Assembly (NCBI GenBank): GCA_003695505.1
Contig: RFIY01000354.1
Location: forward strand, 1-14,001
Length of the DNA: 14,001 nt
Reading direction: 5' to 3'
Source: J088 sp003695505 [NCBI: Candidatus Dadabacteria bacterium]
GTDB taxonomy: Bacteria; J088
Below the pieces are notes generated by a model. The model searched no databases. It saw only the letters and a program-made list of their open reading frames with translations, and was not told the origin of the DNA. A program made the translations under genes and the position numbers. This document shows positions 524 to 13,749 of this stretch, piece after piece (the first letter of the stretch is position 1; every line of letters starts with the position of its first letter).

Positions 524-527
524 GGAG

Positions 528-1022
528 TCAGCCTTCCTTTTCGATGGCTTCGCGCAGCCGGGCCGCTGTATCCTCGAGCAGCTCGGGCAGGACGCGTGTT
601 TCGCCAATGACTGGCATAAAATTGTTATCGCCCGACCAGCGCGGCACGATGTGCAGATGCAGGTGTTCTGGAACCCCGGCCCCGGCCGCGCTACCGAGAT
701 TCATCCCGACATTGAACCCCTGCGGATTCATCGTCTCACGCAAGGCGCGCAGACAGATTTGCAAACCGACATTGAGTTCGAGCGCCTCATCCGCGGAAAA
801 GTTCTCGAAATCGGCACGATGCGCTTTCGGTGCGATCAGCAGGTGGCCGGGATTATACGGGAAGCGATTCAGCATGGCGAAGGTGGAATCGCCTTCCCAG
901 ATCACGAGTGAATCGTGCCCTGGCGCGGCACACAGAAAGCAGTGGCCCTCCTGATGCTCGGGCTTGCCGTGTTTGATGTATGCCATGCGCCACGGCGCCC
1001 ACAGCGGCTGCCCCCCCGTCAC
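528..1022 (-). CDS. HIT-family nucleotide hydrolase/phosphorylase (Ap4A phosphorylase-like)
   Basis: A 164-residue histidine-triad protein. The triad is HLHLHIVPRW, with His at 120, 122 and 124, the middle one being the expected nucleotidyl acceptor. The start LWAPWRMAYI (residues 7-16) is typical of the HIT subgroup that includes the mycobacterial Ap4A phosphorylase. GHLLIAPKAH (59-68) is the usual second block. C28-x-x-C31 together with H68 and H120 has the spacing of the zinc site seen in some bacterial HIT proteins. Likely substrates are diadenosine polyphosphates or other nucleotide adducts; the exact substrate cannot be read from sequence. The start is GTG at 1022, because the conserved LWAPWR block lies upstream of the first internal ATG. 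Its GTG overlaps the sppA stop by one base (TAGTG), so the two are probably translationally coupled. Confidence 0.87.
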   Translation of the reverse strand: MTGGQPLWAPWRMAYIKHGKPEHQEGHCFLCAAPGHDSLVIWEGDSTFAMLNRFPYNPGHLLIAPKAHRADFENFSADEALELNVGLQICLRALRETMNPQGFNVGMNLGSAAGAGVPEHLHLHIVPRWSGDNNFMPVIGETRVLPELLEDTAARLREAIEKEG

Positions 1023-1942
1023 TACGGCACCCAGACCGCCCAGAGCGGGACCAGGCGGGCAGCCGCCTCGCGAGCGGGCGCCGCGAGACCGTCTTCGAGT
1101 ACGCGCTCGTACCAGGGCGGTCCAAGGCGAGGCTTCCAGACATCCGGCTCGCCCTCGATCCCCCCCAGTTCTCCGGCAAGACTGACCGCGGCGGCGTATC
1201 CACCGATGCGGTCGGCCAACCCGTATTCGACCGCACGGGCGCCCGTAAAGACTCGACCATCCGCCAGCTCACGAACACGTTGTTCGGTCACATGTTCACT
1301 CCGCGCGGTTGCAACGTCACGCACGAACTGGTCGAGCACCTCGTCGATCAGATCCTGGAGGTAGCCGCGTTCGACATCGGTCATTGGACGATACCCCGAA
1401 CCGGTATCCTTGAACTGTCCGGTCTTGACAACTTCCATGCGCACCTTTGCCCAGTCAAGAAGCTCACTGACATCGGCGAAGGCCATGATGACGCCAATAC
1501 TCCCGGTCAACGTACCGGCGTTGGCGAGAATCTCCGTCGCGGCACTGGCGATATAGAAGCCGCCACTCGCGGCGACTGATCCCATCGAGACGACAACCGG
1601 CTTTTTGTCCCGCAGATCCAGTAGCGCATGATAGATTTCCTGGCTCGGACCGACCGCCCCGCCCGGGCTATCGATCCGGACAACGACCGCCTTAGTTCGC
1701 TTGTCCTGCTCGAGTTTCTTGAGTCCGTCGATCACGGGGCGGCTTTCCGTAATCGGGCCAATGATTTCGATCAGGCCAACGCGCGGATCGTCACTCAGAC
1801 CGAAGTCCGGGCCCGGCCGATGATCTGATACCGGCTCGGACAGTAGCGCAGCGGTAAACAACGCAAATAGAAACACCACACCCGCGAGCAGCAGGTATGG
1901 TGTCCAGTTCTGACGTGCAGATTCATTCACGATGCATATCAT
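1022..1942 (-). CDS. sppA: SppA-type signal peptide peptidase (S49 family), membrane anchored
   Basis: A short-form S49 serine protease, 306 residues from ATG 1942, expected to cut signal peptides left in the inner membrane. Residues about 15-34 form one membrane anchor (YLLLAGVVFLFALFTAALL), with the catalytic part outside. RIDSPGG (89-95) is the family block. The nucleophile is Ser126 in GSVAASGGFY and the general base is Lys178 in TGQFKDTGS. Their 52-residue spacing equals that of B. subtilis SppA (Ser147/Lys199), and the length fits this short class rather than the duplicated 67-kDa E. coli type. The start is uncertain: GTG 1963 lies in the loop of a strong hairpin, ATG 1942 directly follows that hairpin, and GTG 1930 is also possible. 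None has a good Shine-Dalgarno sequence. The gene sits where ihfB is usually found after rpsA. Confidence 0.85.
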   Translation of the reverse strand: MICIVNESARQNWTPYLLLAGVVFLFALFTAALLSEPVSDHRPGPDFGLSDDPRVGLIEIIGPITESRPVIDGLKKLEQDKRTKAVVVRIDSPGGAVGPSQEIYHALLDLRDKKPVVVSMGSVAASGGFYIASAATEILANAGTLTGSIGVIMAFADVSELLDWAKVRMEVVKTGQFKDTGSGYRPMTDVERGYLQDLIDEVLDQFVRDVATARSEHVTEQRVRELADGRVFTGARAVEYGLADRIGGYAAAVSLAGELGGIEGEPDVWKPRLGPPWYERVLEDGLAAPAREAAARLVPLWAVWVP

Positions 1943-1981
1943 GCCACAGATCGGCGCGAGCACTCCGCGCCGATCCGTGGC
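1943..1981 (-). promoter_or_regulatory. Strong 16-bp hairpin between rpsA and sppA
   Basis: Read on the minus strand, the arms GCCACGGATCGGCGCG and CGCGCCGATCTGTGGC pair over 16 bp (15 Watson-Crick plus one G-U) around a 7-nt loop, GAGTGCT. It begins 7 nt after the rpsA stop and ends at the base before sppA ATG 1942. There is no U-tract after it, so it is not a standard intrinsic terminator. It more likely protects the rpsA 3' end, marks an RNase site, or hides the sppA start unless a ribosome finishing rpsA opens it. Confidence 0.75.
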
Positions 1982-1988
1982 GATCGGA

Positions 1989-3674
1989 TCACAGATCCTG
2001 ATTCAGGACCTTCTCCTTGAGCTGACGCTCGAGTTCGGACTGAACCGTAACGCCGGCGCGTTCGATTTCATCGGCCGACAGATTGCGCATCGTCAGGCTG
2101 ATTTTCTGATCCTGTGGGCTGACGCGCAGCATCCGGACCGTAACTTCATCGCCTTCATTGAACGCGTCGAGATCTTCGCCGGGGATTTCACTGCGATGCA
2201 ACAGACCTTCGATGCCGGGGCGCACTTCGATGAACAGACCGAACTCCGTCTTGCTGACGATCTTGCCGGTGAATTCCGCGCCCGGGGGAAGCTCTTCGGC
2301 GATTTTTTCCCACGGGTTCTCTTCGAGGCTCTTGATCGACAGCGAAAACCGCTCGTTGTCGACATCGACCTGGGTCACGACGGCACGCACCGTATCGCCG
2401 ACATTGAACTTTTCGGAAGGATGGTTGAAGTCCTTGACCCAGGCAATATCGCTGATGTGGATCAGCCCGTCGATGCCTTCGGTCACGCCGACAAAAATAC
2501 CGAAATCGGTAACGCTGCGAACCTCGCCTTCGAGCACGGTGCCCGGAGGGAAGTTCTCGGCGGCTTCGACCCAGGGATTCGGCATCGTCTCGCGGATCGA
2601 CAGACCGATCCGGCGATTTTCCATATCGACCGACTGGACCCGGACCTTGACCGTATCCCCAACCTTGGTGATGTCGCTGGGATGAATATTGCGCTCGGTC
2701 CAGCTCATCTCGCTGACATGAACCAGCCCTTCGACGCCCTCTTCCAGCTCGACGAACGCACCGTAGTCGGCGATGCTGACCACCTTGCCCTCGACGATCG
2801 AGCCTTCGGGGTATTTTTCCTCGACCTGCGTCCACGGATCCGGGGTCTTCTGCTTGATGCCGAGGCTGACGCGCTCGCGCTCGCGATCGAAGCTGAGGAT
2901 CATGACCTCGACTTCGTCGCCGATTTCAAGCATGTCGCTCGGATGATTCAGGCGGCCCCAGGACATGTCGGTGATGTGCAACAGACCGTCGATGCCACCC
3001 AGGTCGATAAACGCACCGTAATCGGTGATGTTCTTGACGATACCTTTGACGACATCGCCGACATTGATCCGTTCGAGCAGCTCTTCACGCAGCTTCGCAC
3101 GTTCTTCCTCGAGCAGCGCGCGGCGACTGAGGACGATGTTGTTGCGGAAGCGGTTGAGTTTGATGATCTTGAATTCGTATTCTTCGCCGATGTAGTCCTC
3201 GAGCGCACGGGTCGGCCGAATCTCGACCTGAGAGCCCGGCAGGAACGCACGCACGCCGATGTCGACGCTGAGGCCGCCCTTGACCTTGGCGGCAACCGTT
3301 CCGCGAATCACGCCACTTTCGCGCGCGACGGCCTCGATTTCATCCCACTTGCGCAGGCGATCGGCCTTTTCCTTGCTCAGCAGGACGATGCCGAATTCAT
3401 CGGCGATCCGGTCGACGTAGACTTCAAGCGTGTCGCCCTCATGGACGTTGATATTGCCTTCTTTGTCAGGCGTAAATTCGGTCACGGGCAAGACGCCTTC
3501 GGCCTTGTAGCCGACGTCGACGATCACGCGGCGCGGCTGCACCTCGATCACCGTTCCGTTGACGATTTCACCTTCCTGTACCGGCTGAATGCCTGCATCT
3601 TCCTGCGCCTTGAGCGCAGCTTCGAACTGCTCGAGGTTCTTCTGGTAGACCTCGGGGGTAGCCATTGTCGTCAT
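1989..3674 (-). CDS. rpsA: 30S ribosomal protein S1
   Basis: A 561-residue S1 protein (E. coli 557), which binds the 30S subunit and unfolds mRNA at initiation. Six S1 (OB-fold) repeats can be followed: about residues 33-100, 117-183, 203-272, 289-359, 376-446 and 463-531. The last four carry the clear pattern G-x-V-x-x-I/V-x-D-Y/F-G-x-F followed by GL(L/V/I)H. The first two are divergent and form the ribosome-binding half, as in E. coli. I chose ATG 3674 (MTTMATPEVYQ) because GGAGG at 3690-3686 lies 11 nt upstream. ATG 3683 is only 2 nt from it, and ATG 3665 is 20 nt away. A longer in-frame extension to 3815 has no coding character and overlaps the structured leader. The gene ends the aromatic supraoperon and is followed by sppA rather than ihfB. 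Confidence 0.97.
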   Translation of the reverse strand: MTTMATPEVYQKNLEQFEAALKAQEDAGIQPVQEGEIVNGTVIEVQPRRVIVDVGYKAEGVLPVTEFTPDKEGNINVHEGDTLEVYVDRIADEFGIVLLSKEKADRLRKWDEIEAVARESGVIRGTVAAKVKGGLSVDIGVRAFLPGSQVEIRPTRALEDYIGEEYEFKIIKLNRFRNNIVLSRRALLEEERAKLREELLERINVGDVVKGIVKNITDYGAFIDLGGIDGLLHITDMSWGRLNHPSDMLEIGDEVEVMILSFDRERERVSLGIKQKTPDPWTQVEEKYPEGSIVEGKVVSIADYGAFVELEEGVEGLVHVSEMSWTERNIHPSDITKVGDTVKVRVQSVDMENRRIGLSIRETMPNPWVEAAENFPPGTVLEGEVRSVTDFGIFVGVTEGIDGLIHISDIAWVKDFNHPSEKFNVGDTVRAVVTQVDVDNERFSLSIKSLEENPWEKIAEELPPGAEFTGKIVSKTEFGLFIEVRPGIEGLLHRSEIPGEDLDAFNEGDEVTVRMLRVSPQDQKISLTMRNLSADEIERAGVTVQSELERQLKEKVLNQDL

Positions 3675-3799
3675 GTTTGTCATTTCCTCCGGGCCGCCGG
3701 CATTGCGGCCATCGATCTGCTCCGGTTCACTGAACTGGTTGGGAGATGAACCGGGAAAGGGTTGAACATGGCTCCGAGCCGCCGTTGCGGCGATCTCGG
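3675..3799 (-). promoter_or_regulatory. Structured rpsA leader with three hairpins
   Basis: Three inverted repeats lie in a row upstream of the rpsA start. Arms 3773-3778/3795-3800 (TCCGAG/CTCGGA) enclose an inner 3780-3784/3788-3792 stem. Arms 3722-3729/3747-3754 give an 8-bp stem (CCGGTTCA/TGAACCGG). Arms 3692-3697/3705-3710 give a 6-bp stem (GGCCGC/GCGGCC), just before GGAGG. The E. coli rpsA translation-initiation region also folds into three hairpins and is the target of S1 autorepression, so the same control is a reasonable inference. The base pairing is seen; the regulation is not. Confidence 0.6.
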
Positions 3800-3840
3800 A
3801 AAAAAAATCGCCCAAACCCGCCCCACTGGCGGTTTCAGGC
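3800..3840 (-). terminator. Intrinsic terminator-like hairpin between cmk and rpsA
   Basis: On the minus strand an imperfect stem, GCC-TG-AAACC-GCC paired with GGC-G-GGTTT-G-GGC around loop AGTGG, is followed by GA and eight Ts (3807-3800). This is a convincing Rho-independent terminator or attenuator. It starts about 30 nt after the cmk stop. It would end transcripts from the pheA-cmk operon, or attenuate any transcript starting at the TATAAT box at 3860-3865. Confidence 0.7.
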
Positions 3841-3859
3841 GGACTTCAGCTTGAGCATG

Positions 3860-3889
3860 ATTATAAACGATCAGACGATGCCGCGCGAA
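3860..3889 (-). promoter_or_regulatory. Candidate rpsA promoter overlapping the cmk 3' end
   Basis: A perfect TATAAT (3865-3860, minus strand) lies 5 nt after the cmk stop codon. A poor -35 match, TTCGCG (3889-3884), is 18 nt upstream, inside the last codons of cmk. Transcription would start near 3853 and pass at once through the terminator-like hairpin at 3840-3800. E. coli rpsA likewise has promoters in and after cmk. The weak -35 makes this a candidate only. Confidence 0.45.
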
Positions 3890-4545
3890 TGGGCCATCTC
3901 GACGATACGCTCAACGACTTCATCAGGTGTCATGGCGGTGCTGTCGATTTGCACGGCGTCGGCGGCGGGGCGCAGTGGTGCAATGTCACGCCCGGTATCA
4001 CGTTCGTCGCGTCGCAACAGATCGTGAAGGACGTCCGGATCGTCCGGATCCAGCCCAAGCTGCGCGGCCCGACGACGCGCGCGCTCGGCAGGTGACGCCG
4101 TCAGAAAGACTTTCAGGGTGGCCTCCGGAAACACGACCGTGCCCATGTCTCGACCCTCCACGACCGCGCCCTGCCGGGCCGCGGCTTCGCGCTGCAATTC
4201 GAGCAGACGCTCGCGTACCACAGGCAATGCGGCCAGGCGACTCGCAGCATCCCCGACCGATTCATCCTGCAACGCCTCCAGCGAAACAGGTTCGCCGTTC
4301 AGAACAACCGAGAAACCGGAGGAACCATCGGGCAGAACGTCCAGCGACACCTGCGGCAACCACCGGGCAATACCGCCAGCGTCCGCATCGGCCACCTCGT
4401 CGCGAATGGCCGCCAGCGCAATGGCCCGGTAGAGCAGGCCTGTACTCAAGAACGGCAGACCTGTCCGTTGCGCCACCTGCCGGGCAACGGAACTCTTTCC
4501 ACTACCCGCCGGTCCGTCGATGGCGATGACCGGGCCGCTGTTCAT
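3871..4545 (-). CDS. cmk: Cytidylate (CMP/dCMP) kinase
   Basis: A 224-residue CMP kinase (E. coli 227), which phosphorylates CMP and dCMP with ATP in pyrimidine salvage. It shows the P-loop GPAGSGKSS at residues 11-19, the CMP-binding GRDMGTVVFP block (about 139-148) and the lid region with RRDERDTGRDIAPL. The start is ATG 4545, four bases inside the aroA stop (ATGA). An in-frame extension back to 4869 is just aroA read in another frame. No separate promoter is visible, so it should be made by coupling to aroA. It is followed by a terminator-like hairpin before rpsA. The identity is firm. Confidence 0.96.
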   Translation of the reverse strand: MNSGPVIAIDGPAGSGKSSVARQVAQRTGLPFLSTGLLYRAIALAAIRDEVADADAGGIARWLPQVSLDVLPDGSSGFSVVLNGEPVSLEALQDESVGDAASRLAALPVVRERLLELQREAAARQGAVVEGRDMGTVVFPEATLKVFLTASPAERARRRAAQLGLDPDDPDVLHDLLRRDERDTGRDIAPLRPAADAVQIDSTAMTPDEVVERIVEMAHSRGIV

Positions 4546-5912
4546 CCGGCACGCACGTCGGCCAGGCCGGAATCGACCAGTTGCTGCCAGAACTGCGGAT
4601 AGCTGATGTCGGCGACACCTCCACCTTTGACGCGCAGCGGGCGACGCGCGATCAGGGCAGCGATCGCGCCTCCGATGGCGATACGGTGATCGTGCAGGGC
4701 ATCGATTTCTACCGGCCCGGCAGAACGCACATCGCGATGGCCGCTGACCCGAAGCCAGTCCGCGCCCGTCTCCACCTCCCCGCCAAACGCCCGCACCACC
4801 TGCGCCACAGCCTCGATACGATCCGTTTCCTTGACGCGTAGTTCGCCCGCGTCTCGAATCTCCACGCATTCGCCGGCGGGCAGAAACATGCCCAAAAGCG
4901 CCAGGAGCGGCAGTTCGTCGATTGCAGCGACGACCTCATTGCCGGCGACCGTCACGCCATGCGCAAGGCCGCCCGAAACGATCAGATCGGCCACCGGTTC
5001 GGGCGTCTCCGCAACCGGGGATCGCTCGATGCGCGCGCCCATACGCACGAGCGCGTCAAAGAATCCGGTTCGCGTCGGATTGACGCAGACACCGGGGATC
5101 CGCACCGGATGCTCGACACCGGCCGCCAGCGCAGCCCAGAACGCAGCGCTGGAAGGGTCTCCAGGCAGAAGCAACTCGGGGGCATTGTCGTGACGGACAC
5201 CGTCGGCATGCAGGCGCAGGCGGGTTTCGCCGTCGTCGCCGGTTTCCATCTGAAGGGGGTAACCGCAGTGGCGCAGGAATCGTTCGGTATGGTCGCGGCT
5301 CAGCACGGGCTCTACGATCTCGACCTCGGTCCGGCCCGTCAGCGCGGCCAGCAGCAGTGCACTCTTGACCTGCGCGCTGCGCCGATGATTGATCATCCGG
5401 TAGGGCCGCAATGGACCGCCCAGCAGTGTCAATGGGAGGAAGCCAGGCGCCTCGCTTTTCGGCGTTGCGCGTACGTCCGCGCCCATGGCAACGAGATGGT
5501 CGATGACGCGCGCCATCGGGCGGCGGCGCAAGGACGCATCACCGTCAAAGGTCCAGGCGCCATCGAATCCAGCACAAAACCCCATCGATAATCGCGCCGT
5601 CGTCCCGCTGTTGCCGCAGAACAGCATCGCCTGAGTGACGCCCGGCTGCCCGGCAATCCCGGAAATCGCAATGGACTGTTTGCCCGCATCGCGATCCGAC
5701 TGCGTAATATCGGCCCCCAGCGCAGCCATGACGTCCAGCGTTCTCTGATTGTCGTCGCCGAGCGGATAATTCGGGATTTGCTGCACCCCCCGCCCCAGCC
5801 CAGCAAACATGGCCGCGCGGTGCGAAATACTCTTGTCGGCCGGCACGGATGCCTCGAGATGGTCAGACGGGAACCCCGTGGGCGTGATTTCGATGTCGAC
5901 AAATTCGCTCAT
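4542..5912 (-). CDS. aroA: 3-phosphoshikimate 1-carboxyvinyltransferase (EPSP synthase), class II-like
   Basis: A 456-residue EPSP synthase, which joins PEP and shikimate-3-phosphate in the sixth step of the shikimate pathway, making the precursor of chorismate used by pheA and tyrA next door. Visible motifs are DKSISHR (26-32), GNSGTTARL (100-108), SAQVK (179-183), RDHTE (206-210), GDPSSAAF (251-258), NPTR (278-281), IDELP (331-335), ELRVKETDR (357-365) and HDHRIA (407-412). The R-x-H-T-E, SAQ-x-K and N-x-TR motifs are those used to define class II enzymes, and the position of Pro101 of the E. coli enzyme is Leu here. It starts at ATG 5912, overlapping the tyrA stop by 4 nt (ATGA). In Pseudomonas the tyrA and aroA counterparts are fused; here they are separate overlapping genes. 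Confidence 0.96.
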   Translation of the reverse strand: MSEFVDIEITPTGFPSDHLEASVPADKSISHRAAMFAGLGRGVQQIPNYPLGDDNQRTLDVMAALGADITQSDRDAGKQSIAISGIAGQPGVTQAMLFCGNSGTTARLSMGFCAGFDGAWTFDGDASLRRRPMARVIDHLVAMGADVRATPKSEAPGFLPLTLLGGPLRPYRMINHRRSAQVKSALLLAALTGRTEVEIVEPVLSRDHTERFLRHCGYPLQMETGDDGETRLRLHADGVRHDNAPELLLPGDPSSAAFWAALAAGVEHPVRIPGVCVNPTRTGFFDALVRMGARIERSPVAETPEPVADLIVSGGLAHGVTVAGNEVVAAIDELPLLALLGMFLPAGECVEIRDAGELRVKETDRIEAVAQVVRAFGGEVETGADWLRVSGHRDVRSAGPVEIDALHDHRIAIGGAIAALIARRPLRVKGGGVADISYPQFWQQLVDSGLADVRAG

Positions 5913-6748
5913 GTCGTTTCACGGGCGGCACGGACAAGTGCACGAACCTGCTCCAGCGTTGCGGCCACAGCCTCTGAATCGCTGCTGATCTGCTCGATCA
6001 GGCCGCGCAGGATCCGATCGAATACAGACGCCGCGTCCATCAGTGCCGGCTGGTTTGCTTCGAAAATATCGCGCCACATCACGGGGTCGCTGGCGGCGAT
6101 ACGCATGAAGTCGCGTAGGCCCCCGCCACCGTAGGACAGCAGGCCGGGGTCCATCTGCCGTAGTGCCTCACCGAGCGCGAACGCGAGCAGATGCGGCAGG
6201 TGACTTACCCAGGCGAATATTTCGTCGTGCCGCGCAGCGCTCATCCGTTCGAGCTGGGCTCCGGTGGCGCCGACCATCCCGGCCACCAGGTCTATGGCGT
6301 CCGCATCGCTACCCTCGGGTGTAATGATCCAGCGGGCATCCTCGAACAGGTCGGCGTCCGCCGCGGCCGCGCCGCTGTCCTCGGTGCCGGCGATCGGGTG
6401 ACCACCAACGAAGCGCCTCGGAAAAGGCAGTCGCGCGGCTTGCGCGACAACGGACTGCTTGACGCTGCCGACGTCGGTCACGACCGTATGCTCGGTCACT
6501 TCAGGCGCAATCGCCTCGAAAATCGCGCCGACCGTACGCACCGGCGTCGCAACGACGACCAGATCGGCGCCGGTGACCGCCGATAACGGTTGATGCGTGT
6601 AGCGGTCGACGCATCCGAGTTGCAGGGCGGTCTCCAGATTGGCGCTGCTGCGACCGCAGCCAACGACTTCGGACGCAAAACCGCTCTGTCGCAGCCGCAG
6701 TCCGAGCGAACCGCCAATCAGGCCGACACCAATGATTGCTACCTGCAC
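5909..6748 (-). CDS. tyrA: Prephenate (or arogenate) dehydrogenase
   Basis: A 279-residue TyrA without a chorismate mutase or ACT domain. It oxidises and decarboxylates prephenate, or arogenate, on the way to tyrosine. The Rossmann motif GVGLIGGSLG is at residues 7-16. GGHPIAGTEDSG (116-127) carries the expected catalytic His118, and HLPHLLAFAL (184-193) belongs to the helical C-terminal dimer domain. After strand 2 the protein reads VVGCGRS where NAD-specific enzymes have an Asp, so NADP use is possible. The start is GTG 6748, because the Rossmann strand begins immediately (QVAIIG); no strong Shine-Dalgarno is present. It lies 12 nt after hisC and overlaps aroA by 4 nt. Choice between prephenate and arogenate cannot be made from sequence. 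Confidence 0.93.
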   Translation of the reverse strand: MQVAIIGVGLIGGSLGLRLRQSGFASEVVGCGRSSANLETALQLGCVDRYTHQPLSAVTGADLVVVATPVRTVGAIFEAIAPEVTEHTVVTDVGSVKQSVVAQAARLPFPRRFVGGHPIAGTEDSGAAAADADLFEDARWIITPEGSDADAIDLVAGMVGATGAQLERMSAARHDEIFAWVSHLPHLLAFALGEALRQMDPGLLSYGGGGLRDFMRIAASDPVMWRDIFEANQPALMDAASVFDRILRGLIEQISSDSEAVAATLEQVRALVRAARETT

Positions 6749-6760
6749 GGCGCGGACCGA

Positions 6761-7867
6761 TCAGCGTCCAAGCACGCGACGCAACGCCGCCACAAAAAAG
6801 GCGTTCTCGTCGTCTGTGCCGGTATTGACCCGCAAATGGTGGGGCAAGCCAAAACCCCGCATCGAGCGCACGATGACCCCTTCGTGCAACAGCGCCTCGA
6901 ACAATTCATCGGCGGGGCGCGGAACGTCGAAGAGCACGAAATTGGCCTGCGACGGGTGCACGCGCAACCCGATCTGTCCGAGTTCTGCGGTCAGCCATTC
7001 GATGGAGCGACGATTCTGCTCGACGACACGATCGAGAAATTCGGTGTCGTCCAGCGCGGCAACCGCGGCGCCCTGCCCCATGCGGTTGACATTGAACGGC
7101 TGCCGGACGCGCTGCATCATGTCGATCGCAGATGGATGCCCAACGCCCCAGCCGATGCGCAGCCCGGCAAGTCCATACGCCTTCGAAAAGGTTCGGGTCA
7201 CGAACACATTCGGGAATTCACTCAGCAGATCGAGCCCATCCGAAACCTGATCCGGATCGGCATATTCGGCATAGGCCGCATCGTAGACAACGATGCGGTT
7301 GGGCGAAATCCGCCCGAGAAACGAACGCATCTGCGCGCGTGAACACGCCGTACCGGTTGGATTGTTCGGATTGGCCACAAAGATCAGGCGGGCATCGTGC
7401 GCTTCGGCGAGGTCTGCCAGCGCATCCAGATCGTACGCCAGCCCATCCATCGGCGCAGTGATGTATCGCGCCCCCAACGCCTGCGACAACAGACCGTAGA
7501 CTGCGAAAGTGATGGCCGCCGAAACAACCGTCTCGCCTGGCCGGACAAACGTGCGCAGCGCCAGTTCGAGCAGCTCGTTCGAACCGTTGCCGGTGATGAT
7601 CTGCTCGACCGGCACGGCAATCTTCGTTGACAGCGCCTCGCGCAGCTCACGCGCCGCGCCGTCCGGATAACGGTGCATTTCGGACGCCATCTGCTGCATC
7701 CGCGTGATCGCTGCCGGCGATGGTCCGAACGGATTTTCGTTCGAAGCCAGCTTGACGATTCGTTCGAGTCCAAGCTCGCGCTGCAGATCTTCGACCGGTT
7801 TGCCGGGTTCATACGGATGCAGCTCAGCAATGCCGGAATGCACGAGTCTGGTCGCGTCAAACGTCAT
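6761..7867 (-). CDS. hisC: HisC-family aminotransferase, probably aromatic (HisC2/HisHb type)
   Basis: A 368-residue fold-type I PLP aminotransferase of the histidinol-phosphate family. Motifs are KLASNENPFGPSP (39-51), GNGSNELL (93-100), NPNNPTGT (166-173), D196 in VYDAAYAEY, and the PLP lysine K229 in TFSKAYGLAGLRIGW. Sitting between pheA and tyrA, with no other histidine genes near, it most likely transaminates phenylpyruvate, hydroxyphenylpyruvate or prephenate, as its counterpart (HisHb) in the mixed-function supraoperon is thought to do, perhaps with histidinol-phosphate activity as well. The usual DEAY block reads DAAY. The start ATG 7867 has GGAG 7 nt upstream and overlaps the end of pheA by 11 nt. 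A 40-residue extension to 7987 lies inside pheA and is not expected. Confidence 0.92.
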   Translation of the reverse strand: MTFDATRLVHSGIAELHPYEPGKPVEDLQRELGLERIVKLASNENPFGPSPAAITRMQQMASEMHRYPDGAARELREALSTKIAVPVEQIITGNGSNELLELALRTFVRPGETVVSAAITFAVYGLLSQALGARYITAPMDGLAYDLDALADLAEAHDARLIFVANPNNPTGTACSRAQMRSFLGRISPNRIVVYDAAYAEYADPDQVSDGLDLLSEFPNVFVTRTFSKAYGLAGLRIGWGVGHPSAIDMMQRVRQPFNVNRMGQGAAVAALDDTEFLDRVVEQNRRSIEWLTAELGQIGLRVHPSQANFVLFDVPRPADELFEALLHEGVIVRSMRGFGLPHHLRVNTGTDDENAFFVAALRRVLGR

Positions 7868-8951
7868 CGCCAACTCCTGCCGCCGCCGAAAAGACGCCGA
7901 GGATGCGCGCGTGTACGCCTGACTGTTGCAGCGCCTGCAGCGCGGCGCTTTCGCGCTCACCCTGCGCGTTCCCCTGCATCTCAACAAAGAATCGGTACTC
8001 CCAGGGTCGGGAGCGCGCCGGACGACTGTCGATCTGCGTCAGATTCAGTTCGTATTCGGCAAACACCTGCAAGGCACGCGCCAGGCTGCCCGGCTCGTGC
8101 GGCAACACCAGCATCAGCGCAGTCTTGTCGCCTTGACCGGCCGGCTCTCGCCCGACGACCCAGAATCGCGTGCGATTATCGGCGCGATCCTCGACCGGTC
8201 CGGCGAGCACAGGCAGACGAGCCGCGGCAACGACCAGCGGCCCGGCTATCGCCGCCGCGCCCTGCTCGGACGCCGCGCGCTCGGCCGCGGCAGCGGTACT
8301 TTCAACCGTAACGAGCGGTACCCCGTTCAGATGCGCGCGAAGCCACTGGCGCGCCTGCCGAAGCGGCTGTGCGTGAGAATAGACGACCCGCACATCCTCG
8401 AGATTTTCCACATTCGACAACAGATACAGTTCAACCGGCACAATGACTTCACCGACAACCTGCAGCTCGTGTTCGACGACCAGATCGAACGTCGTGCCAA
8501 TGAAACCTTCGAGCGCGTTTTCGACCGGCAACACTCCGGCCTCGACTTCACCCCGCGCCACCGCCTCGGCGACATCGGCGAACTCCGCCTGCGGTGCCAG
8601 TTCCACTTCTGGCCCGAAATAGTCGAGTACCGCCTGGTGCGAAAACGTATTACAGGGGCCAAGAAAGGCGATACGCGGCGGCTGCTCAAGATTCCGACAG
8701 GCACGAATGACCTGCTGGAAAATCAGCCGCACGGCCTGATCCGACAGGGGGCCGTCGTTCAGTGCCGCCAGCGCGTCGAGTACCGACCGCTCGCGTTCTG
8801 GATCGTAAATCGGCAACCCGTGCGCCTGCTTGATGTGGCCAATCTCGAGTGCAACACGAGCGCGTTCGGCCAGCAGACGCAACAACTCGCGGTCACAGCG
8901 GTCGATGCGCTCTCGCAGAGATTGCAACTCGGAGCGGGGATCATCAGTCAT
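7857..8951 (-). CDS. pheA: Bifunctional chorismate mutase / prephenate dehydratase (P-protein)
   Basis: A 364-residue P-protein that turns chorismate into phenylpyruvate. The AroQ chorismate mutase helix bundle spans about 5-85 (LRERIDRCDRELLRLLAERA, with IGHIKQ). The dehydratase spans about 92-268, with VPVEN-type LPVENALEG (141-149), VESTAAAAE (216-224) and the essential TRF at 261-263. An ACT domain at about 277-355 has PGSLARAL (287-294) and IDSRPARSRPWEYRFF (307-322), counterparts of the GALV and ESRP motifs that bind phenylalanine for feedback inhibition. The normally near-invariant FLGPxGTFS block reads FLGPCNTFS here. The start ATG 8951 has only a weak GAAG upstream. It is the first gene of the aromatic operon in this window, with a promoter candidate just upstream; serC, usually next to it, is missing. 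Confidence 0.96.
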   Translation of the reverse strand: MTDDPRSELQSLRERIDRCDRELLRLLAERARVALEIGHIKQAHGLPIYDPERERSVLDALAALNDGPLSDQAVRLIFQQVIRACRNLEQPPRIAFLGPCNTFSHQAVLDYFGPEVELAPQAEFADVAEAVARGEVEAGVLPVENALEGFIGTTFDLVVEHELQVVGEVIVPVELYLLSNVENLEDVRVVYSHAQPLRQARQWLRAHLNGVPLVTVESTAAAAERAASEQGAAAIAGPLVVAAARLPVLAGPVEDRADNRTRFWVVGREPAGQGDKTALMLVLPHEPGSLARALQVFAEYELNLTQIDSRPARSRPWEYRFFVEMQGNAQGERESAALQALQQSGVHARILGVFSAAAGVGDDV

Positions 8952-9025: not shown

Positions 9026-9052
9026 ATTATACCCGCGCGCGCCGCCAGCCAA
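9026..9052 (-). promoter_or_regulatory. Candidate pheA operon promoter
   Basis: A perfect TATAAT (9031-9026, minus strand) overlaps the TAA stop of the upstream peptidase gene. TTGGCT (9052-9047), four of six matches to a -35 box, lies 15 nt upstream, a short spacer. The predicted start near 9019 gives a leader of about 68 nt to pheA. It separates the aromatic operon from the peptidase gene, which has no terminator of its own. Confidence 0.5.
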
Positions 9053-10178
9053 GCAGAACCAGCAACGCAGCCGCCCACCAGACTGCACCATCTGGCGCAG
9101 CGGTCCCCGCGGCACAACCGCCTGACGGCGGTTGTTGCACCAGATCGGGCGGCCTCCAGCGTAACGTCATCGTGACCCGTGGCTGATCCGGTATAAAACG
9201 CCACTCGACGGTCAGTGCCCCACCCTCGACCGTTAGCGGCACCTCGCCGAGCCGCGCTTCATCCGGCCCAATCAGCACCTCGTACAACCGTTCGAACGTC
9301 CCGTCACGTCCGTACCAGTCGATTTCAAACATCCAGCCCTCGTCGTCCACCACCCCGGGCAGTGGTTGCAACCCGAACCAGACGCCGCCACTCGCAAATG
9401 GGACGCGAAGCACGTCTTCCGGGTAGATCGTCCGGCGCTCGGGCCGCGACTCGGTCGGCTGCACATCACGGACTTCGGCCCAGCCCCGCCGGACACGCAG
9501 CACAGGATCCAGCGGCGCGACCGGGTCGGCGATCCAGCCCATCAATGTCAGGGCGCGCTCGTTCCGGTCACTGTGCGGGTCATACCAGTCCGGGAAACCA
9601 AGAAAATGGCCGATTTCATGGAGCGCCGCCTGTGGCCCCGTCGCGACAAGCAGATCATAGCCCAGCGCACCCGTTTCGGCGATCAGCCAGCGACCCGGCA
9701 AGTAAAAGCCTGCGCCGGACACCGCACCCGGCGCGGCAATCAGCAGATATGCATCGGGCGGATCGGTGCTGCGCCGATAACGCACGTCGAGCTGGACGAT
9801 CCACGGGCGCAGTGCCGCCGGGTCAAATGGATCAAGACGGCAATCCGCACAACGCCGCCACTCGACCGGCTCAGCGGTGCGAAAGCGCAGATCGCTGCGC
9901 CCGCCCGAGGTGCGATCCCAGAAACGCTGCGCGTAGTCGGCAAATCCCCAGGCCCACGAAGGCGCGGGCTCAACGTCTCCATCAACGATCGCCGTGACCG
10001 GTACGACCTCTACGACGCGGCCGCGCGTCAGGCCGGGCCCGAATGCAGCCTGCTGCGCCGCGCTCAACGACGGCAGCACAACCGCAAGCAGCCCGCATGC
10101 AACCGCCTGCAGTAAAAGAGGTTTTACCGCACCCGCGGCGCACCCTGCCCGAAATGGCTGTTTTGACAGAATCCCCAT
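9027..10178 (-). CDS. Secreted M6-like metallopeptidase with a C-terminal sorting-like tail
   Basis: A 383-residue protein from ATG 10178. It has a signal peptide (core LLLQAVACGLLAVVLPSL, cut after LSA near residue 40). The zinc motif HEIGHFLGFPD (187-197) has the form HExxHxxGxxD, with Asp as third ligand. A Met-turn-like TLMGW (211-215) and then PVLRVRRGWAEV (225-236) follow in the order seen in M6 (immune inhibitor A-like) peptidases. CADC (110-113) may form a disulfide. The C-terminus reads PSGGCAAG, a hydrophobic helix (about 364-378) and a basic end WRRARV, a three-part tail like GlyGly-CTERM or similar Cys-containing sorting signals. The product is probably a surface or exported protease of unknown substrate. 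An alternative TTG start at 10199 adds seven residues. No Shine-Dalgarno is seen. It stands where serC would be in related operons. Confidence 0.75.
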   Translation of the reverse strand: MGILSKQPFRAGCAAGAVKPLLLQAVACGLLAVVLPSLSAAQQAAFGPGLTRGRVVEVVPVTAIVDGDVEPAPSWAWGFADYAQRFWDRTSGGRSDLRFRTAEPVEWRRCADCRLDPFDPAALRPWIVQLDVRYRRSTDPPDAYLLIAAPGAVSGAGFYLPGRWLIAETGALGYDLLVATGPQAALHEIGHFLGFPDWYDPHSDRNERALTLMGWIADPVAPLDPVLRVRRGWAEVRDVQPTESRPERRTIYPEDVLRVPFASGGVWFGLQPLPGVVDDEGWMFEIDWYGRDGTFERLYEVLIGPDEARLGEVPLTVEGGALTVEWRFIPDQPRVTMTLRWRPPDLVQQPPSGGCAAGTAAPDGAVWWAAALLVLLGWRRARV

Positions 10179-10192
10179 GGATTCATTATCAT
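10163..10192 (+). promoter_or_regulatory. Strong promoter candidate for the plus-strand operon
   Basis: A perfect -35 TTGACA (10163-10168) is followed after 18 nt by TATCAT (10187-10192), five of six matches to the -10 box. Transcription would start near 10199, about 44 nt before the ATG at 10243. The -35 lies within the opening codons of the opposite-strand peptidase gene, so the two transcripts overlap or compete. Confidence 0.65.
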
Positions 10193-10193
10193 A
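10185..10193 (-). promoter_or_regulatory. Possible -10 element for the M6-like peptidase gene
   Basis: The minus strand reads TTATGATAATG here, giving TATGAT (10193-10188) or GATAAT (10190-10185). Either would place the transcription start within a few bases of ATG 10178, so the mRNA could be leaderless or nearly so; that would explain the missing Shine-Dalgarno. It shares bases with the plus-strand -10. No clear -35 was found. Confidence 0.3.
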
Positions 10194-10242
10194 AGGCAAC
10201 GATCCCCCCTACGGCGAGCGTGAACATGAAGGAGCTTCGATC

Positions 10243-10866
10243 ATGGCCGCAAGCAATTCTCTGTTGGACCGGCTGATGGCGCTGGGCGAAGATCGCCTCG
10301 AAGACGCCCTCGAAGAACTCGCGAACAACCCGCTTGTCGGCAGTCTTGCTGAACAAATGATTGACCGCGCACGCCAGGCGCGCGAGCGCGCCGAGGATCG
10401 GATGCAGGAGCTGTTTCGTTCGCTGCAACTTCCTCCCCGTGAAGAGCTCGACAAGGTTGCAGACCGCGTGGAAGCGGCTGAACAGCGCATCGCAGGCCTT
10501 CTGGAGCGTGCAGACGCACTTCTGAAAGCCGCGCAGGAGAAAGCCGAAGCCGCGAAGGCCGCTGCAGCAAAACCGAAAACACCGGCAAAGAAATCGACCG
10601 CAAAGAAGGCTCCTGCGAAAAAGACCGCCGCGAAGAAGGCCACGGCAAAGAAAGCAGCGAGTGCGGGCAAGAAGTCGGCGACAAAGCAGGCGGCCAGCAA
10701 ATCCGGCGCAAAAAAGGCCGCGACGGGCGCCAAAAAGAAGGCGTCGGGCACTGCTGCAAAGAATGCCACGGCGAAGAAATCCACCGCCAAAAAAACAACA
10801 ACGGCAAAAAAATCGACCGCCCGCAAGACGACCAGCAGCAGCGCTGCAAAAAAGAAAAGCTCCTGA
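10243..10866 (+). CDS. PhaF/AlgP-like protein: helical N-terminus with histone-H1-like Lys/Ala tail
   Basis: A 207-residue protein in two parts. Residues 1-105 are charged, leucine-rich and heptad-like (RLEDALEELANN, DRARQARERAEDRM, KVADRVEAAEQRIAGLLERADALL), predicted to be coiled coil. Residues about 106-207 are almost only Ala, Lys, Thr and Ser in repeats such as AKKSTAKKAPAKKTAAKK, like the C-termini of histone H1, AlgP and the phasin PhaF. Such tails bind DNA without sequence specificity; in PhaF this links polyester granules to the nucleoid. The N-terminus only loosely resembles phasins, so a granule role is inference. AAGGAG (10229-10234) lies 8 nt before the ATG. It is the first gene of a four-gene run, after a strong promoter. 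Two A7 tracts (10789-10795, 10806-10812) in the tail are slippage-prone. Confidence 0.75.
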   Translation: MAASNSLLDRLMALGEDRLEDALEELANNPLVGSLAEQMIDRARQARERAEDRMQELFRSLQLPPREELDKVADRVEAAEQRIAGLLERADALLKAAQEKAEAAKAAAAKPKTPAKKSTAKKAPAKKTAAKKATAKKAASAGKKSATKQAASKSGAKKAATGAKKKASGTAAKNATAKKSTAKKTTTAKKSTARKTTSSSAAKKKSS

Positions 10867-10889
10867 GCTCCTGAGGCGCCCGAACGCCA

Positions 10890-11867
10890 ATGGCACGCAA
10901 GAACGAAAGCATCGCCGTCACCGGACTCAATACATTCGTTGGACGCGAAGTCGTCAAGCGGCTGACGCGCGATGGCCGGCGGGTGGTTGGAATCGACCTC
11001 GATCGTCCACGCGACCTGCCGCAGTCGGTACAGTTTTACAAGGTGGATCTGACCCTGCCGACTTCCGATGCGATTCTCGCCGACATCTTCCGGCGCGAAA
11101 AGGTCGGCCGCCTGATTCATCTGTCGTTTCTGAGTCGCCCCAGCCGCAACGTGTCCTGGCAGCATGAGCTGCAGGTGATCGGCACGTTGCACCTGCTGCA
11201 CGCCTGCGCGGCGGAAAATGTCAAACAAATCGTCGTCAAGTCGCGCACGATGGTCTACGGCGCGCACCCGCTCAACCCGAATTATCTGACCGAGGACGCA
11301 CCGCTACGTGGCGTTGACGGCTACCGCTGGGTCGGAGATCTGGTCGAAGTCGAACAGATTCTGCAGCGCTACCGCAGTCGGCACCTCGATGCGAACGTCA
11401 TTTCACTGCGATTCGCGCCAATCCTGGGTCCGACGGTGCGCAACGTCTTTACGCTTCTGTTCGGCCAGCCGGCGGTCATGACGCTGTTCGGATACGATCC
11501 ACTCTGGCAGCTTGTCCATGAAGAAGACGCGATCGCGGCGGTACTGCGCGCGGCCGACGCTGACGCGAACGGCGCGTTCAATATCGTTGGACGGCACGTC
11601 CTGCCGCTATCCAGCCTGATTTACCTGGCTGGACGCGTCAATCTGCCGGTACCGCACCCGCTTGCATATGGTCTGGTGCGCACCGCCTGGCTCGCTGGTG
11701 CATCACCCGTGCCGGCCGAGCACCTGGACTATGCACGCTTTCTCTGGGTCGCCGACGGCGCACGCGCTGAAGCGGCGCTTGGCTTTGTCCCAACCTATTC
11801 GACACGCGAAACCATGGAGCAGTTTGCTGGCGTTCAGCGGCTGCGCGACGCCCATCTCGCCGCCTGA
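10890..11867 (+). CDS. Extended-SDR (NAD-dependent epimerase/dehydratase-like) protein with degenerate active site
   Basis: A 325-residue protein of the GalE-like extended SDR fold. The N-terminal strand and glycine loop read AVTGLNTFVG (9-18), with Thr where the middle Gly of TGxxGxxG is expected. VVGIDLDRP (32-40) is the second strand, whose Asp suggests NAD(H). VKSRTMVYG (116-124) matches the SSxxVYG block, but the catalytic Ser/Thr position appears to be Arg119. The YxxxK motif reads Y145-R-W-V-G149, without the lysine. LRFAPILGP (173-181) and the C-terminal part are normal. It may therefore bind a dinucleotide without the usual catalysis, or act by another route. Mycobacterial Rv0501 (annotated galE2), next to acyltransferase Rv0502, is a similar pairing as I recall it. 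It starts 23 nt after the H1-like gene and has only a weak, distant GAGG. Confidence 0.8.
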   Translation: MARKNESIAVTGLNTFVGREVVKRLTRDGRRVVGIDLDRPRDLPQSVQFYKVDLTLPTSDAILADIFRREKVGRLIHLSFLSRPSRNVSWQHELQVIGTLHLLHACAAENVKQIVVKSRTMVYGAHPLNPNYLTEDAPLRGVDGYRWVGDLVEVEQILQRYRSRHLDANVISLRFAPILGPTVRNVFTLLFGQPAVMTLFGYDPLWQLVHEEDAIAAVLRAADADANGAFNIVGRHVLPLSSLIYLAGRVNLPVPHPLAYGLVRTAWLAGASPVPAEHLDYARFLWVADGARAEAALGFVPTYSTRETMEQFAGVQRLRDAHLAA

Positions 11868-11917
11868 CGGCTGGAGCCGCTCACGGGCGAAGGGCACGAT
11901 ACGAGAGGGATCCGAGG

Positions 11918-12685
11918 GTGGTACGTACTGCATTCATCAATGAAAAAGGCGGCACCGGCAAGACCACGCTGGCCGTCCACACCGCAGCCTGGATTGCCGA
12001 GAATCTGGGCAAGAAGGTGCTGCTGGTCGACATGGATCCACAGGGTCAGGTCGGCAAGACGCTTGGTTTTCCCGCACGCGACGAGCGGCATCCGGCTTCG
12101 ACACTGTTGCAGGACAAGGAAGCTCGCCCCGGAGATCTCGCCGAGCCGACCGCCATCGACAACCTCGATGTCATCCGCTCCGACAAAACGCTCGCATCCG
12201 TCGCCGAAAAAATCGCTCGCCGCAAGGATGCGCACCGCATTCTCGACGAGAAGTTTCAGCGTTACCGCAAGCACGATGTGGTCATTTTCGACAGCCCACC
12301 GAGCCTGGGCATCCTGACGCAGAACATCCTCTGGGCCAGCCAGAATGTCGTATTGCCGGTCGCCTGTACCTATCTGGCGCTGGATGGATGCGCCGAGCTG
12401 ATCCAGACCATCGACCAGGTTCAGGAAGAATCCGGACGCAAGACTCCGGCGGTTTGCGCGATCGTGCCAACGTTCCGGCGGCGTACCCGCCTTGCCAATG
12501 AAATTCTGGAGCGTCTGGACGAGTATTTTCCCGACTGGCTGACCGATTCGATCGGTTTCTATGTCGCCGTCGACGAAGCGCAAAGTCACGGCAAGACGAT
12601 CTGGCAATACCGCAAACGATCAACGGCCGCTCAGGTCTTCAATGACGTCTGCGCTCAGATCGCGGCGCGAATGGGGGTCAAATGA
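11918..12685 (+). CDS. ParA-family ATPase without ParB
   Basis: A 255-residue ParA/Soj-type ATPase. The deviant Walker A is KGGTGKTT (10-17), with signature Lys10 and Lys15. Walker A' is LLVDMDPQGQ (35-44), and Walker B is VVIFDSPPSLGILTQN (121-136). LPVACTYLALDG (146-157) and the basic stretch TFRRRTRLANE (185-195) are also as in ParA proteins that bind DNA non-specifically. It lacks the N-terminal helix-turn-helix of plasmid P1-type ParA. No parB follows: the next gene is an acyltransferase overlapping by 4 nt (ATGA). Orphan ParA proteins usually position a cargo other than DNA, such as chemoreceptors, carboxysomes or granules. The start is GTG 11918, with GAGAGGGA about 8 nt upstream. The family is sure; the cargo is unknown. 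Confidence 0.9.
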   Translation: MVRTAFINEKGGTGKTTLAVHTAAWIAENLGKKVLLVDMDPQGQVGKTLGFPARDERHPASTLLQDKEARPGDLAEPTAIDNLDVIRSDKTLASVAEKIARRKDAHRILDEKFQRYRKHDVVIFDSPPSLGILTQNILWASQNVVLPVACTYLALDGCAELIQTIDQVQEESGRKTPAVCAIVPTFRRRTRLANEILERLDEYFPDWLTDSIGFYVAVDEAQSHGKTIWQYRKRSTAAQVFNDVCAQIAARMGVK

Positions 12686-13749
12686 ACAAAGCGGTCGACA
12701 CCCTCGACCGCCTGGCGGCCCTCGAACAGGAACTGTTCCGCACCTATGCCCGCCTCGGCATCCGGCGCACCCCGCTGCCGCCTGTAGATAAAACCGATCC
12801 GGAAAGCGTCGCCCTGCACGTCGAGTGGATCGAGAAAGAACTGGCAGCACTGGAGCGCCTGCTGGAACGACGTGTGCGCCAGAACCGGCCACGCTCTCTC
12901 GGCGAGCGTTTGCGCAGTCTGAATCCATCGCGGCTGACCGGACGCGCCGCACTGCTTGGTCTGACCGAACCGGCCGCGAGCGTCGATCCATTCGGTCGTG
13001 ACGATCGCATCTATGAACAGCTCCGACCGTGGATCCAGCAGTTGTTCGAAGAATACTGGCGTGTCGAGGTCGAAGGTCTGCCGAACCTGCCCTCGGACGG
13101 TGCCGCACTGATGGTCGCCAACCATGGCGGCCTGTTGCCGTTCGACGCGCTGATGATCCGCTACGCGGTGCAGGAGCTGCATCCAGCCGGCCGGATCCCA
13201 CGCTTTCTGCTCGAAGACTGGTTCATGCGCATGCCGGCGCTGAACATCCTGTTGCAACGCCTCGGCGCCGTGCGCGGGTCCCGGGACAACGCGCGCAAGC
13301 TGCTCGAGAAGGGGGACGTCGTCGGGCTGTTTCCCGAAGGCGCCAAGGGCGTCACCAAACCGTGGCGCGATCGCTATCGCGTGCAGCGCTTCGGTCGTGG
13401 CGGTGCGATCCGGCTTGCGCTCGAAGCGGGCGTACCGATCATCCCGGTTGCCGTGGTCGGCAACGAAGAGACCTACCCGCTGCTCGGCAAGGCTCCGCTG
13501 CCGCGTAACAGCGACTTCAACTTTTTCCCGATCACGCCGCTGTTCCCGTGGCTCGGCCCCGCGGGTCTGATGCCGCTGCCGTCAAAGTGGATGATCCGCT
13601 TCGGCGAGCCGATCGAGATGGGCGACTTTCCAGAGTCGGCAGCCGACGACGACATCCTCGTCAACACCCTCAACGAAGAACTGCGTGGCCGGATCCAGGA
13701 AATGGTCAATCAGCTCCTGCAACGCCGCCGCAGCCCCTGGCTGGGGTAG
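12682..13749 (+). CDS. LPLAT-superfamily acyltransferase with N-terminal helical extension
   Basis: A 355-residue protein. Residues 1-70 are charged and leucine-rich, probably coiled coil (RLAALEQELFR, WIEKELAALERLLERRV). An acyltransferase domain spans about 110-345. Motif I is ANHGGLLPFDALM, with His148 and Asp155 six residues apart (HX6D) instead of the usual HX4D. Motif III is GLFPEGAKG (215-223), and VPIIPVAVVG (251-260) is the motif IV region. This fits the branch with mycobacterial Rv0502 and DGAT-like proteins rather than PlsC itself. The likely reaction is acyl transfer to a glycerol-3-phosphate, lysolipid or other alcohol; the substrate is unknown. No clear transmembrane helix is seen, so it is probably peripheral to the membrane. 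It overlaps the ParA gene by ATGA, so the two are made together. Confidence 0.88.
   Translation: MNKAVDTLDRLAALEQELFRTYARLGIRRTPLPPVDKTDPESVALHVEWIEKELAALERLLERRVRQNRPRSLGERLRSLNPSRLTGRAALLGLTEPAASVDPFGRDDRIYEQLRPWIQQLFEEYWRVEVEGLPNLPSDGAALMVANHGGLLPFDALMIRYAVQELHPAGRIPRFLLEDWFMRMPALNILLQRLGAVRGSRDNARKLLEKGDVVGLFPEGAKGVTKPWRDRYRVQRFGRGGAIRLALEAGVPIIPVAVVGNEETYPLLGKAPLPRNSDFNFFPITPLFPWLGPAGLMPLPSKWMIRFGEPIEMGDFPESAADDDILVNTLNEELRGRIQEMVNQLLQRRRSPWLG

What the first reader, a model, noticed from the sequence alone, without database searches (positions are those of the whole stretch)
10243..13749. Four-gene operon: H1-tailed coiled-coil protein, degenerate SDR, orphan ParA and acyltransferase
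Seen: four same-strand genes with gaps of 23 and 50 nt and one ATGA overlap, after a near-consensus promoter. Known: PhaF-type tails tie polyester granules to the nucleoid; ParA ATPases without ParB position non-DNA cargo; an SDR/acyltransferase pair (Rv0501/Rv0502) exists in mycobacteria. Inference: the operon could build and position a lipid or polyester inclusion, or a membrane domain, with the ParA surfing the nucleoid and the coiled-coil/H1-like protein as adaptor. I know no characterised system with this exact set.
Basis: partly seen in the sequence, partly recalled or inferred. Interest (0 to 1): 0.75.

Follow-up and report, generated by a model that had tools for sequence, protein, structure and literature searches.

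The report
ParA operon for placing lipid granules
Four neighbouring genes in an uncultured bacterium, found again together in distant lineages, look like a system that uses a DNA-riding motor to place fat- or plastic-storing granules, or the enzyme that makes their lipid, inside the cell; the cargo is inferred, not yet shown.

Summary
In detail: four same-strand genes (gaps 23 and 50 nt, one ATGA overlap) encode a Lys-rich-tailed coiled-coil protein, an SDR-fold protein without its YxxxK pair, a ParA-type ATPase and a PlsC-fold acyltransferase. Four of 86 loci with this ParA hold all four genes. In 59 of 86 a homologue of the coiled-coil protein precedes ParA; 21 of 23 aligned members match phasin models (reversed control 0 of 10; the window member does not match). 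A PhaR-type gene lies near in 55 of 86. SDR and acyltransferase also pair without ParA. New: an N-terminal peptide LGx[DN]P[FL] on acyltransferase paralogues (one elsewhere in this genome, one in M. xanthus) and on CheW proteins beside sister ParAs; I read it as a ParA docking tag. The window's own acyltransferase lacks it.

Best reading: a ParA ratchet that positions storage inclusions, or their lipid-making enzymes, through a phasin-like nucleoid-binding adaptor. This genome has two WS/DGAT genes and no clear PhaC. Cargo, DNA binding and docking are inferred. In the passages I saw, a 2025 review leaves the energy source of such granule spacing unknown. New variant of a known kind.

The parts
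10163..10192 (+). sigma-70-like promoter TTGACA-18-TATCAT
   Evidence: 11 of 12 matches, 0.7 expected by chance in the region
10243..10866 (+). gene 1: phasin-like coiled-coil (cc) protein with Lys/Ala-rich H1-like tail (residues 7-109 predicted helical, rest mostly low confidence)
   Evidence: (iterated family HMM 59 bits); residues 96-207 K+R 31%, A+P+S+T 61%
10890..11867 (+). gene 2: extended-SDR fold protein, catalytic YxxxK lost (WVGDL)
11918..12685 (+). gene 3: ParA-type ATPase of a distinct clade (KGGTGKTT Walker A)
12682..13749 (+). gene 4: PlsC-fold acyltransferase with about 100-residue N-terminal extension; lacks the LGxDPF peptide
12682..12685 (+). ATGA start/stop overlap between ParA and acyltransferase genes

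Best explanation
The operon is a ParA-type intracellular positioning system whose cargo is a lipid or polyester storage inclusion, or the patch of lipid-synthesising enzymes that makes it. Shown here: the ParA belongs to one clade apart from the Soj-type ParAs compared, and is encoded with a phasin-like coiled-coil protein, with a PhaR-type gene nearby in many genomes, and/or with an SDR-acyltransferase pair. Inferred: ATP-bound ParA dimers coat the nucleoid; the phasin-like protein sits on the inclusion with its helical part and on DNA with its Lys-rich tail; contact with partner proteins triggers ATP hydrolysis and a diffusion ratchet that spaces and segregates the inclusions. In many relatives, and perhaps through a paralogue in this genome, the acyltransferase itself is the partner, docking by an N-terminal LGx[DN]P[FL] peptide as ParB docks by its N-terminal motif. 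In this genome the cargo is more likely a TAG/wax-ester body than PHA (two WS/DGAT genes, no clear PhaC in an 84.5% complete assembly).
For: Four-gene set in 4 of 86 loci with this ParA, in distant lineages (a lower bound, since L098 is cut before the place of gene 1). cc gene directly before ParA (gap -1 to 84 nt) in 55 more. 21 of 23 cc proteins match PF05597 and 21 of 23 TIGR01837 at E<=0.05; reversed control 0 of 10. PhaR N-terminal motif gene in 55 of 86 loci; the M. xanthus one scores 94.8 bits with PF07879. ParA clade support 100/99. Strict LGxDPF in 1.2 Mb of loci (overlaps included): 14 distinct places, 13 at acyltransferase N-termini, the 14th (L120) in a cut-off frame right after ParA. 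Similar peptide on CheW proteins (PF01584) whose genes overlap sister ParA genes in L108 and L121. Motif on a long-type acyltransferase in 19 of 20 ParA-bearing genomes, 0 of 3 ParA-less (Fisher 0.0023, no phylogenetic correction). Two WS/DGAT in G000.
Against: The window protein 1 itself does not match a phasin model at E<=0.05. The window, L039, L098 and L106 acyltransferases lack the LGxDPF peptide; none was found in G035, though 4 of its 8 pattern matches were not read. Of 21 ParA-bearing genomes searched, PhaC_N passes its cut-off in 6 and WS/DGAT in 9 (G028 and G053 look like one genome), so no single inclusion chemistry tracks the ParA. No PhaC was found in the 80 loci (two tblastn queries). 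Two ParAs of the clade sit with CheW proteins, so the clade is not only about inclusions. The Lys-rich tail is not seen on the Myxococcota members. 4 of 86 loci show none of these partners. Many loci are close relatives, so counts are not independent.
Confidence: 0.55

Rival explanations
1. The ParA positions a phospholipid-remodelling enzyme complex (acyltransferase plus SDR-fold subunit) at a membrane or nucleoid-near domain; storage inclusions are not involved and the phasin-like protein is a general membrane-surface or scaffold coiled coil (compare BMFP/UbiK; UbiK recalled).
For: The acyltransferase has a PlsC/GPAT fold (VIA Z 18.1 to T. maritima PlsC, rmsd 3.4, 204 aligned). The SDR-acyltransferase pair occurs in G014, G020, G024, which have no clade ParA. 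Weak BMFP match of protein 1 (E 0.098); 2 of 23 cc members match BMFP.
Against: Phasin models are the commonest matches of the cc family and a PhaR-type gene is a frequent neighbour.
Confidence: 0.22
2. The proteins form a nucleoid-linked regulatory circuit: H1-like and PhaR-type proteins are DNA binders, and the ParA modulates their DNA binding and the expression of lipid genes rather than moving cargo (compare MLDS/MLDSR of Rhodococcus).
For: PhaR-motif gene in 55 of 86 loci; H1-like tail; MLDS precedent (abstract of PMC5504291).
Against: The docking-like peptide on acyltransferases and CheW fits a cargo role; a regulatory role would not need it.
Confidence: 0.12
3. The ParA clade serves chemotaxis or other cargos and its place beside lipid genes reflects housekeeping gene order, with no joint function.
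For: CheW-linked members L108 and L121.
Against: Recurrent four-gene order across distant lineages, ATGA overlap, 80 of 86 loci with phasin-like, PhaR-type or acyltransferase neighbours.
Confidence: 0.06

Closest known systems
McdA/McdB carboxysome positioning
   Same: ParA-type ATPase paired with an adaptor for a non-DNA organelle (review passages PMC13052382)
   Different: Cargo here is inferred to be lipid/polyester; the adaptor is phasin-like; McdA chains are far weaker matches (1.1e-8) than Soj (4.1e-30)
PhaF (P. putida) / PhaM (C. necator) granule tethering
   Same: N-terminal granule-binding part plus histone-like C-terminal DNA-binding part (review passages)
   Different: The review passages name no ParA with them; the window protein matches phasin models only through its family
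AlgP of P. aeruginosa
   Same: H1-like tail protein that spaces polyphosphate granules (review passages)
   Different: No ParA partner named in those passages; N-terminal part not compared here
Rv0501/Rv0502-type SDR-acyltransferase pair of mycobacteria
   Same: SDR next to PlsC-like acyltransferase (recalled; the SDR's best NCBIfam match is PRK05865 sugar epimerase family, 43.1 bits, far below cut-off)
   Different: No ParA or phasin recalled there; not compared with those sequences; papers on it seen only as a listing and passages of PMC10593935
ParC/PpfA chemotaxis ParAs with N-terminally docking partners
   Same: ParA with a partner said to dock by its N-terminus (PMC10241942 passages); sister ParAs L108/L121 are next to CheW
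   Different: Here the candidate partner is an acyltransferase or a phasin-like protein
MLDS/MLDSR of Rhodococcus jostii
   Same: Lipid droplets tied to genomic DNA by a droplet protein (abstract)
   Different: No ParA in the abstract; sequences not compared

Membership tests
ParA/MinD Walker ATPase | deviant Walker A KGGxxKT[ST] and ParA family match | tested here: met
   EKGGTGKTT; PF13614 8e-40; Thermus Soj 1wcv 4.1e-30
ParABS chromosome/plasmid partition | ParB gene beside ParA | tested here: not met
   none among the window's neighbours; in 82 of 86 loci the neighbours counted are cc, PhaR-type, acyltransferase or CheW genes; ParB itself was not searched for by model in those loci
ParABS chromosome/plasmid partition | parS site | not tested
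   -
Phasin (PF05597/TIGR01837) | match to family model over its curated cut-off | tested here: not met
   window protein: no match at E<=0.05; of five cc proteins scanned singly only L057 passes the PF05597 cut-off (54.2 against 28.8 bits)
Phasin-like family (looser) | family members match phasin models above chance | tested here: met
   21 of 23 at E<=0.05, reversed 0 of 10
PhaF-type nucleoid-tethering phasin | binds granule and DNA | not testable with these tools
   only the Lys-rich, low-confidence tail is seen
PlsC/LPLAT acyltransferase | PF01553, FPEG motif, PlsC fold | tested here: met
   FPEG invariant in the 12 rows of A2; PlsC Z 18.1. His-Asp spacing is H-x6-D in A2, not the recalled HX4D
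Catalytic SDR oxidoreductase | YxxxK catalytic pair | tested here: not met
   WVGDL in the window; 3 of 12 aligned rows keep both residues
ParB-like ParA-docking peptide | N-terminal peptide that binds and stimulates ParA | not testable with these tools
   position and co-occurrence only; ParB motif from PMC12462528 passages

The most novel reading that the evidence does not exclude
A widespread, undescribed ParA family positions storage inclusions and other cargos through a portable N-terminal docking tag, LGx[DN]P[FL], that evolution has placed on acyltransferases and on CheW proteins; with a phasin-like nucleoid tether it gives bacteria ATP-driven inheritance of lipid or polyester granules.
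Probability: 0.45. Interest if true: 0.85.

Novelty: new variant of a known kind. Interest (0 to 1): 0.72.

Why it matters
How bacteria space and pass on PHA or lipid granules is open: a 2025 review (PMC13052382, passages only) lists PhaM, PhaF, PhaH and AlgP as tethers with ATP dependence unknown, and suggests that a system analogous to carboxysome positioning might be involved. A ParA encoded beside phasin-like, PhaR-type and acyltransferase genes, also in the tractable M. xanthus, makes that directly testable. The LGx[DN]P[FL] peptide would be a simple sequence tag for finding cargos of otherwise orphan ParAs.

Tried and rejected
Plasmid or phage origin of the ParA: the 5000 plasmid records kept (a limit that was reached) are all under 60% identity, and the 7 viral hits are ParAs at 27-32%; the 5 of them put in the tree fall outside the clade. 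Rejected.

PHA as the fixed cargo: PhaC_N passes its cut-off in 7 of 24 genomes (6 of 21 ParA-bearing, G014 being the seventh), each match covering only the end of the model. The own-genome candidate (C114) is below that cut-off (20.9 bits) and scores 219.9 against 365.3 for TIGR01836, with GWSMGG (Ser) where the M. xanthus protein has GYCMGG (Cys); the M. xanthus one also stays below, 325.4. No PhaC found in the 80 loci. WS/DGAT as the fixed cargo maker: 9 of 24, all 9 ParA-bearing (9 of 21); G028 and G053 show the same contigs, so 8 of 20 distinct. Neither is general.

The cc profile was iterated three times and then also matched the C-terminal part of the PhaR-type proteins; those were removed by the PhaR N-terminal motif before the 59 of 86 count. 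So part of the cc signal is coiled-coil character; the tight place before ParA (55 of 59 within 84 nt) does not depend on that. For the 23-row alignment the script picked 24 of 59; I dropped L061, L080 and L122 (doubtful starts) and added L075 and L105. The reversed control used 10 of the 23, cut to 110 residues.

The wider pattern [LMI]Gx[DN]P[FL] is not rare by itself: 72 matches in 2.2 million residues of frames not scored as acyltransferase, the two CheW proteins and repeat or cut copies of acyltransferase frames among them. The strict form and its N-terminal place are what tell. DNA pattern scans of whole genomes found mostly other places, and only the matches with a locus (30) were read. 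The 19-of-20 count takes genomes with an acyltransferase of about 290 bits or more; it includes two LGxDPL cases (G067, G071) and one with an unsure start (G049). For G000 and G057 the motif is on a second acyltransferase, which I looked up on purpose in G057. Left out: G058 (contig cut before the N-terminus), G069 (MGNDPF, frame with one stop), genomes with only lower-scoring acyltransferases and no motif seen (G041, G042, G043, G045, G046, G055, G061, G062); G059 and G060 had no acyltransferase at 1e-40 and are the CheW cases. G044 was without a clade ParA.

Literature searches for ParA with PHA, lipid bodies or acyltransferase: 20 of 279 papers listed; 20 of 21; 20 of 89; 20 of 257; 4 of 4; 5 of 5; 0 found. 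I saw listings and abstract starts and noticed no such system; most papers were not listed. Searches are listings on side questions. Papers seen as passages: PMC13052382, PMC10241942, PMC10593935, PMC12462528; as abstract and outline: PMC5504291. No bioRxiv and few subscription papers are held.

AlphaFold of protein 1 has mean pLDDT 68 and was not used for a fold search.
Full report
WHAT IS THERE. The window is one whole contig (C58, 14001 nt) of an assembly of 395 contigs, 84.5% complete, without relatives below domain level in the genome collection. Protein families: gene 2 PF01370, gene 3 PF13614, gene 4 PF01553; gene 1 has no match over a cut-off. AlphaFold gives gene 1 helices within residues 7-109 and a low-confidence Lys-rich tail, and gene 4 a PlsC fold (VIA Z 18.1, rmsd 3.4, 204 aligned). 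The SDR has lost its YxxxK pair (WVGDL); of 12 aligned rows, 3 (L037, L039, L057) keep both residues.

IS IT MORE THAN CHANCE. In 41 genomes (own plus 40 spread over the domain) the best acyltransferase relatives outside the own genome (G014, G020, G024, G028, G035) have the SDR in the same short locus, 5 of 5. So SDR-acyltransferase is an old pair. The clade ParA is in 8 of 47 genomes, with a gap between 276 and 190 bits; six of those 47 had been added as class-mates of G035, so of the 41 it is in 3 (G000, G028, G035). It is absent from G014, G020 and G024. G035 has all four genes in the window's order, followed by glnD by my reading.

THE ParA NEIGHBOURHOOD. A scan of genome contigs kept the best 80 of 259 relatives, mostly Myxococcota and Deltaproteobacteria, M. 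xanthus among them. With six more loci, the window included (86 in all), I counted: phasin-like cc gene on the same strand 59 (55 of them -1 to 84 nt before ParA, 4 with the SDR between: window, L039, L106, L057); PhaR-motif gene without cc 8; acyltransferase after ParA without cc or PhaR 13 (L120 counted on a cut-off frame; L098 is cut before the place of gene 1); CheW after ParA 2; none of these 4 (L052, cut after ParA, L094, L109, L123). A PhaR-motif gene is in 55, with cc in 47. Get3/ArsA-type ATPase genes are within 57 of the 80 loci. These loci were selected by ParA and many are close relatives, so the counts are not independent events.

WHAT GENE 1 IS. 23 cc proteins were aligned, chosen from 59. 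21 of 23 match PF05597 Phasin and 21 of 23 TIGR01837 PHA_granule_1 at E<=0.05. The next Pfam family matches 10. Ten reversed sequences gave 0 phasin matches. Two other small proteins, from L051 and L057, gave none either. Of five cc proteins scanned singly only L057's passes the PF05597 cut-off. The window protein itself does not match; it joins through the family (59 bits in the iterated model; 32% identity to L039). The Lys-rich tail is seen in the window, L039 and L106, three of the four four-gene loci.

THE DOCKING PEPTIDE. Strict LGxDPF in the 1.2 Mb of loci then held (overlaps included) sits at 14 distinct places: 13 acyltransferase N-termini and one frame cut off by the contig end just after ParA. 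Examples: MPRKVLGKDPF (L057), MPKRVLGSDPF (L051); a later search added MAKGVLGNDPF of M. xanthus (L176). In L108 and L121 the gene that overlaps the end of the clade ParA gene encodes instead a CheW protein (PF01584) starting MSQQDILGRDPL and MVDDALGKNPL. One kind of peptide on two unrelated proteins next to the same kind of ParA is the strongest hint that it docks to ParA. ParB docks by an N-terminal motif of aliphatic and basic residues (PMC12462528 passages), and partner proteins in general are said to do so by a charged N-terminus (PMC10241942 passages). The likeness to the ParB motif is my reading. Over genomes: 19 of 20 ParA-bearing genomes with a long-type acyltransferase have the motif on one, against 0 of 3 ParA-less. 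In this genome the bearer is a paralogue on C226, and in G057 it is a second acyltransferase too. The window's acyltransferase lacks it, so in this operon the cc protein is the better candidate partner, or the C226 paralogue.

CARGO. The own genome has two WS/DGAT genes over the cut-off and only a PhaC-like protein with Ser in place of Cys. TAG/wax bodies are therefore more likely than PHA here. M. xanthus has a PhaC-like protein with Cys and a WS/DGAT. Of 21 ParA-bearing genomes searched, PhaC_N passes in 6 and WS/DGAT in 9, so neither marker is general.

MECHANISM. ParA coats the nucleoid; the phasin-like adaptor and/or a tagged acyltransferase marks the inclusion, stimulates ATP hydrolysis and lets the inclusion follow the ParA gradient. 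Steps shown: gene order, families, clade (100/99 in a tree of 56 rows thinned from 94, with 3 Soj-type and 5 viral outgroup rows), peptide. Steps inferred: inclusion binding, DNA binding, docking, movement.

KNOWN OR NEW. The review PMC13052382 (passages) names PhaM, PhaF, PhaH and AlgP as tethers and leaves ATP dependence of granule spacing unknown. My paper searches (listings, three of them capped at 20 of many) showed no ParA-granule system. It works like McdAB and PhaF combined; gene 3 is a ParA-family member, and the operon is not a ParABS system by its neighbours.

Noticed in passing
L075:2705-4776 and 57 of 80 ParA loci: Get3/ArsA-type ATPase genes lie near the cc-ParA or SDR-ParA-AT genes (PF02374); a possible link to membrane or droplet protein insertion.
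   Followed up: partly
L108:5992-7586; L121:6001-7456: Clade ParA gene overlapping a CheW-domain gene whose product has an N-terminal LGx[DN]PL peptide; in L121 among chemotaxis-like genes by my reading.
   Followed up: partly
L041 (G000:C226): Second long-type acyltransferase of this genome carries GRLGNDPF near its N-terminus; the contig starts just before it, so its upstream gene is unknown.
   Followed up: partly
window 9027-10199 (-): Divergent gene for a protein with weak M6-metalloprotease and MYXO-CTERM matches, both below cut-off.
   Followed up: no
window 146-8951 (-): By my reading a housekeeping run: LapA-like, HIT protein, SppA-like protease, rpsA, cmk, aroA, tyrA-like, hisC, pheA.
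   Followed up: no
L175:1503-2597 (G000:C114) and L179:2367-3464 (G035): PhaC class III-like proteins with GWSMGG, Ser instead of the Cys seen in M. xanthus (GYCMGG).
   Followed up: partly
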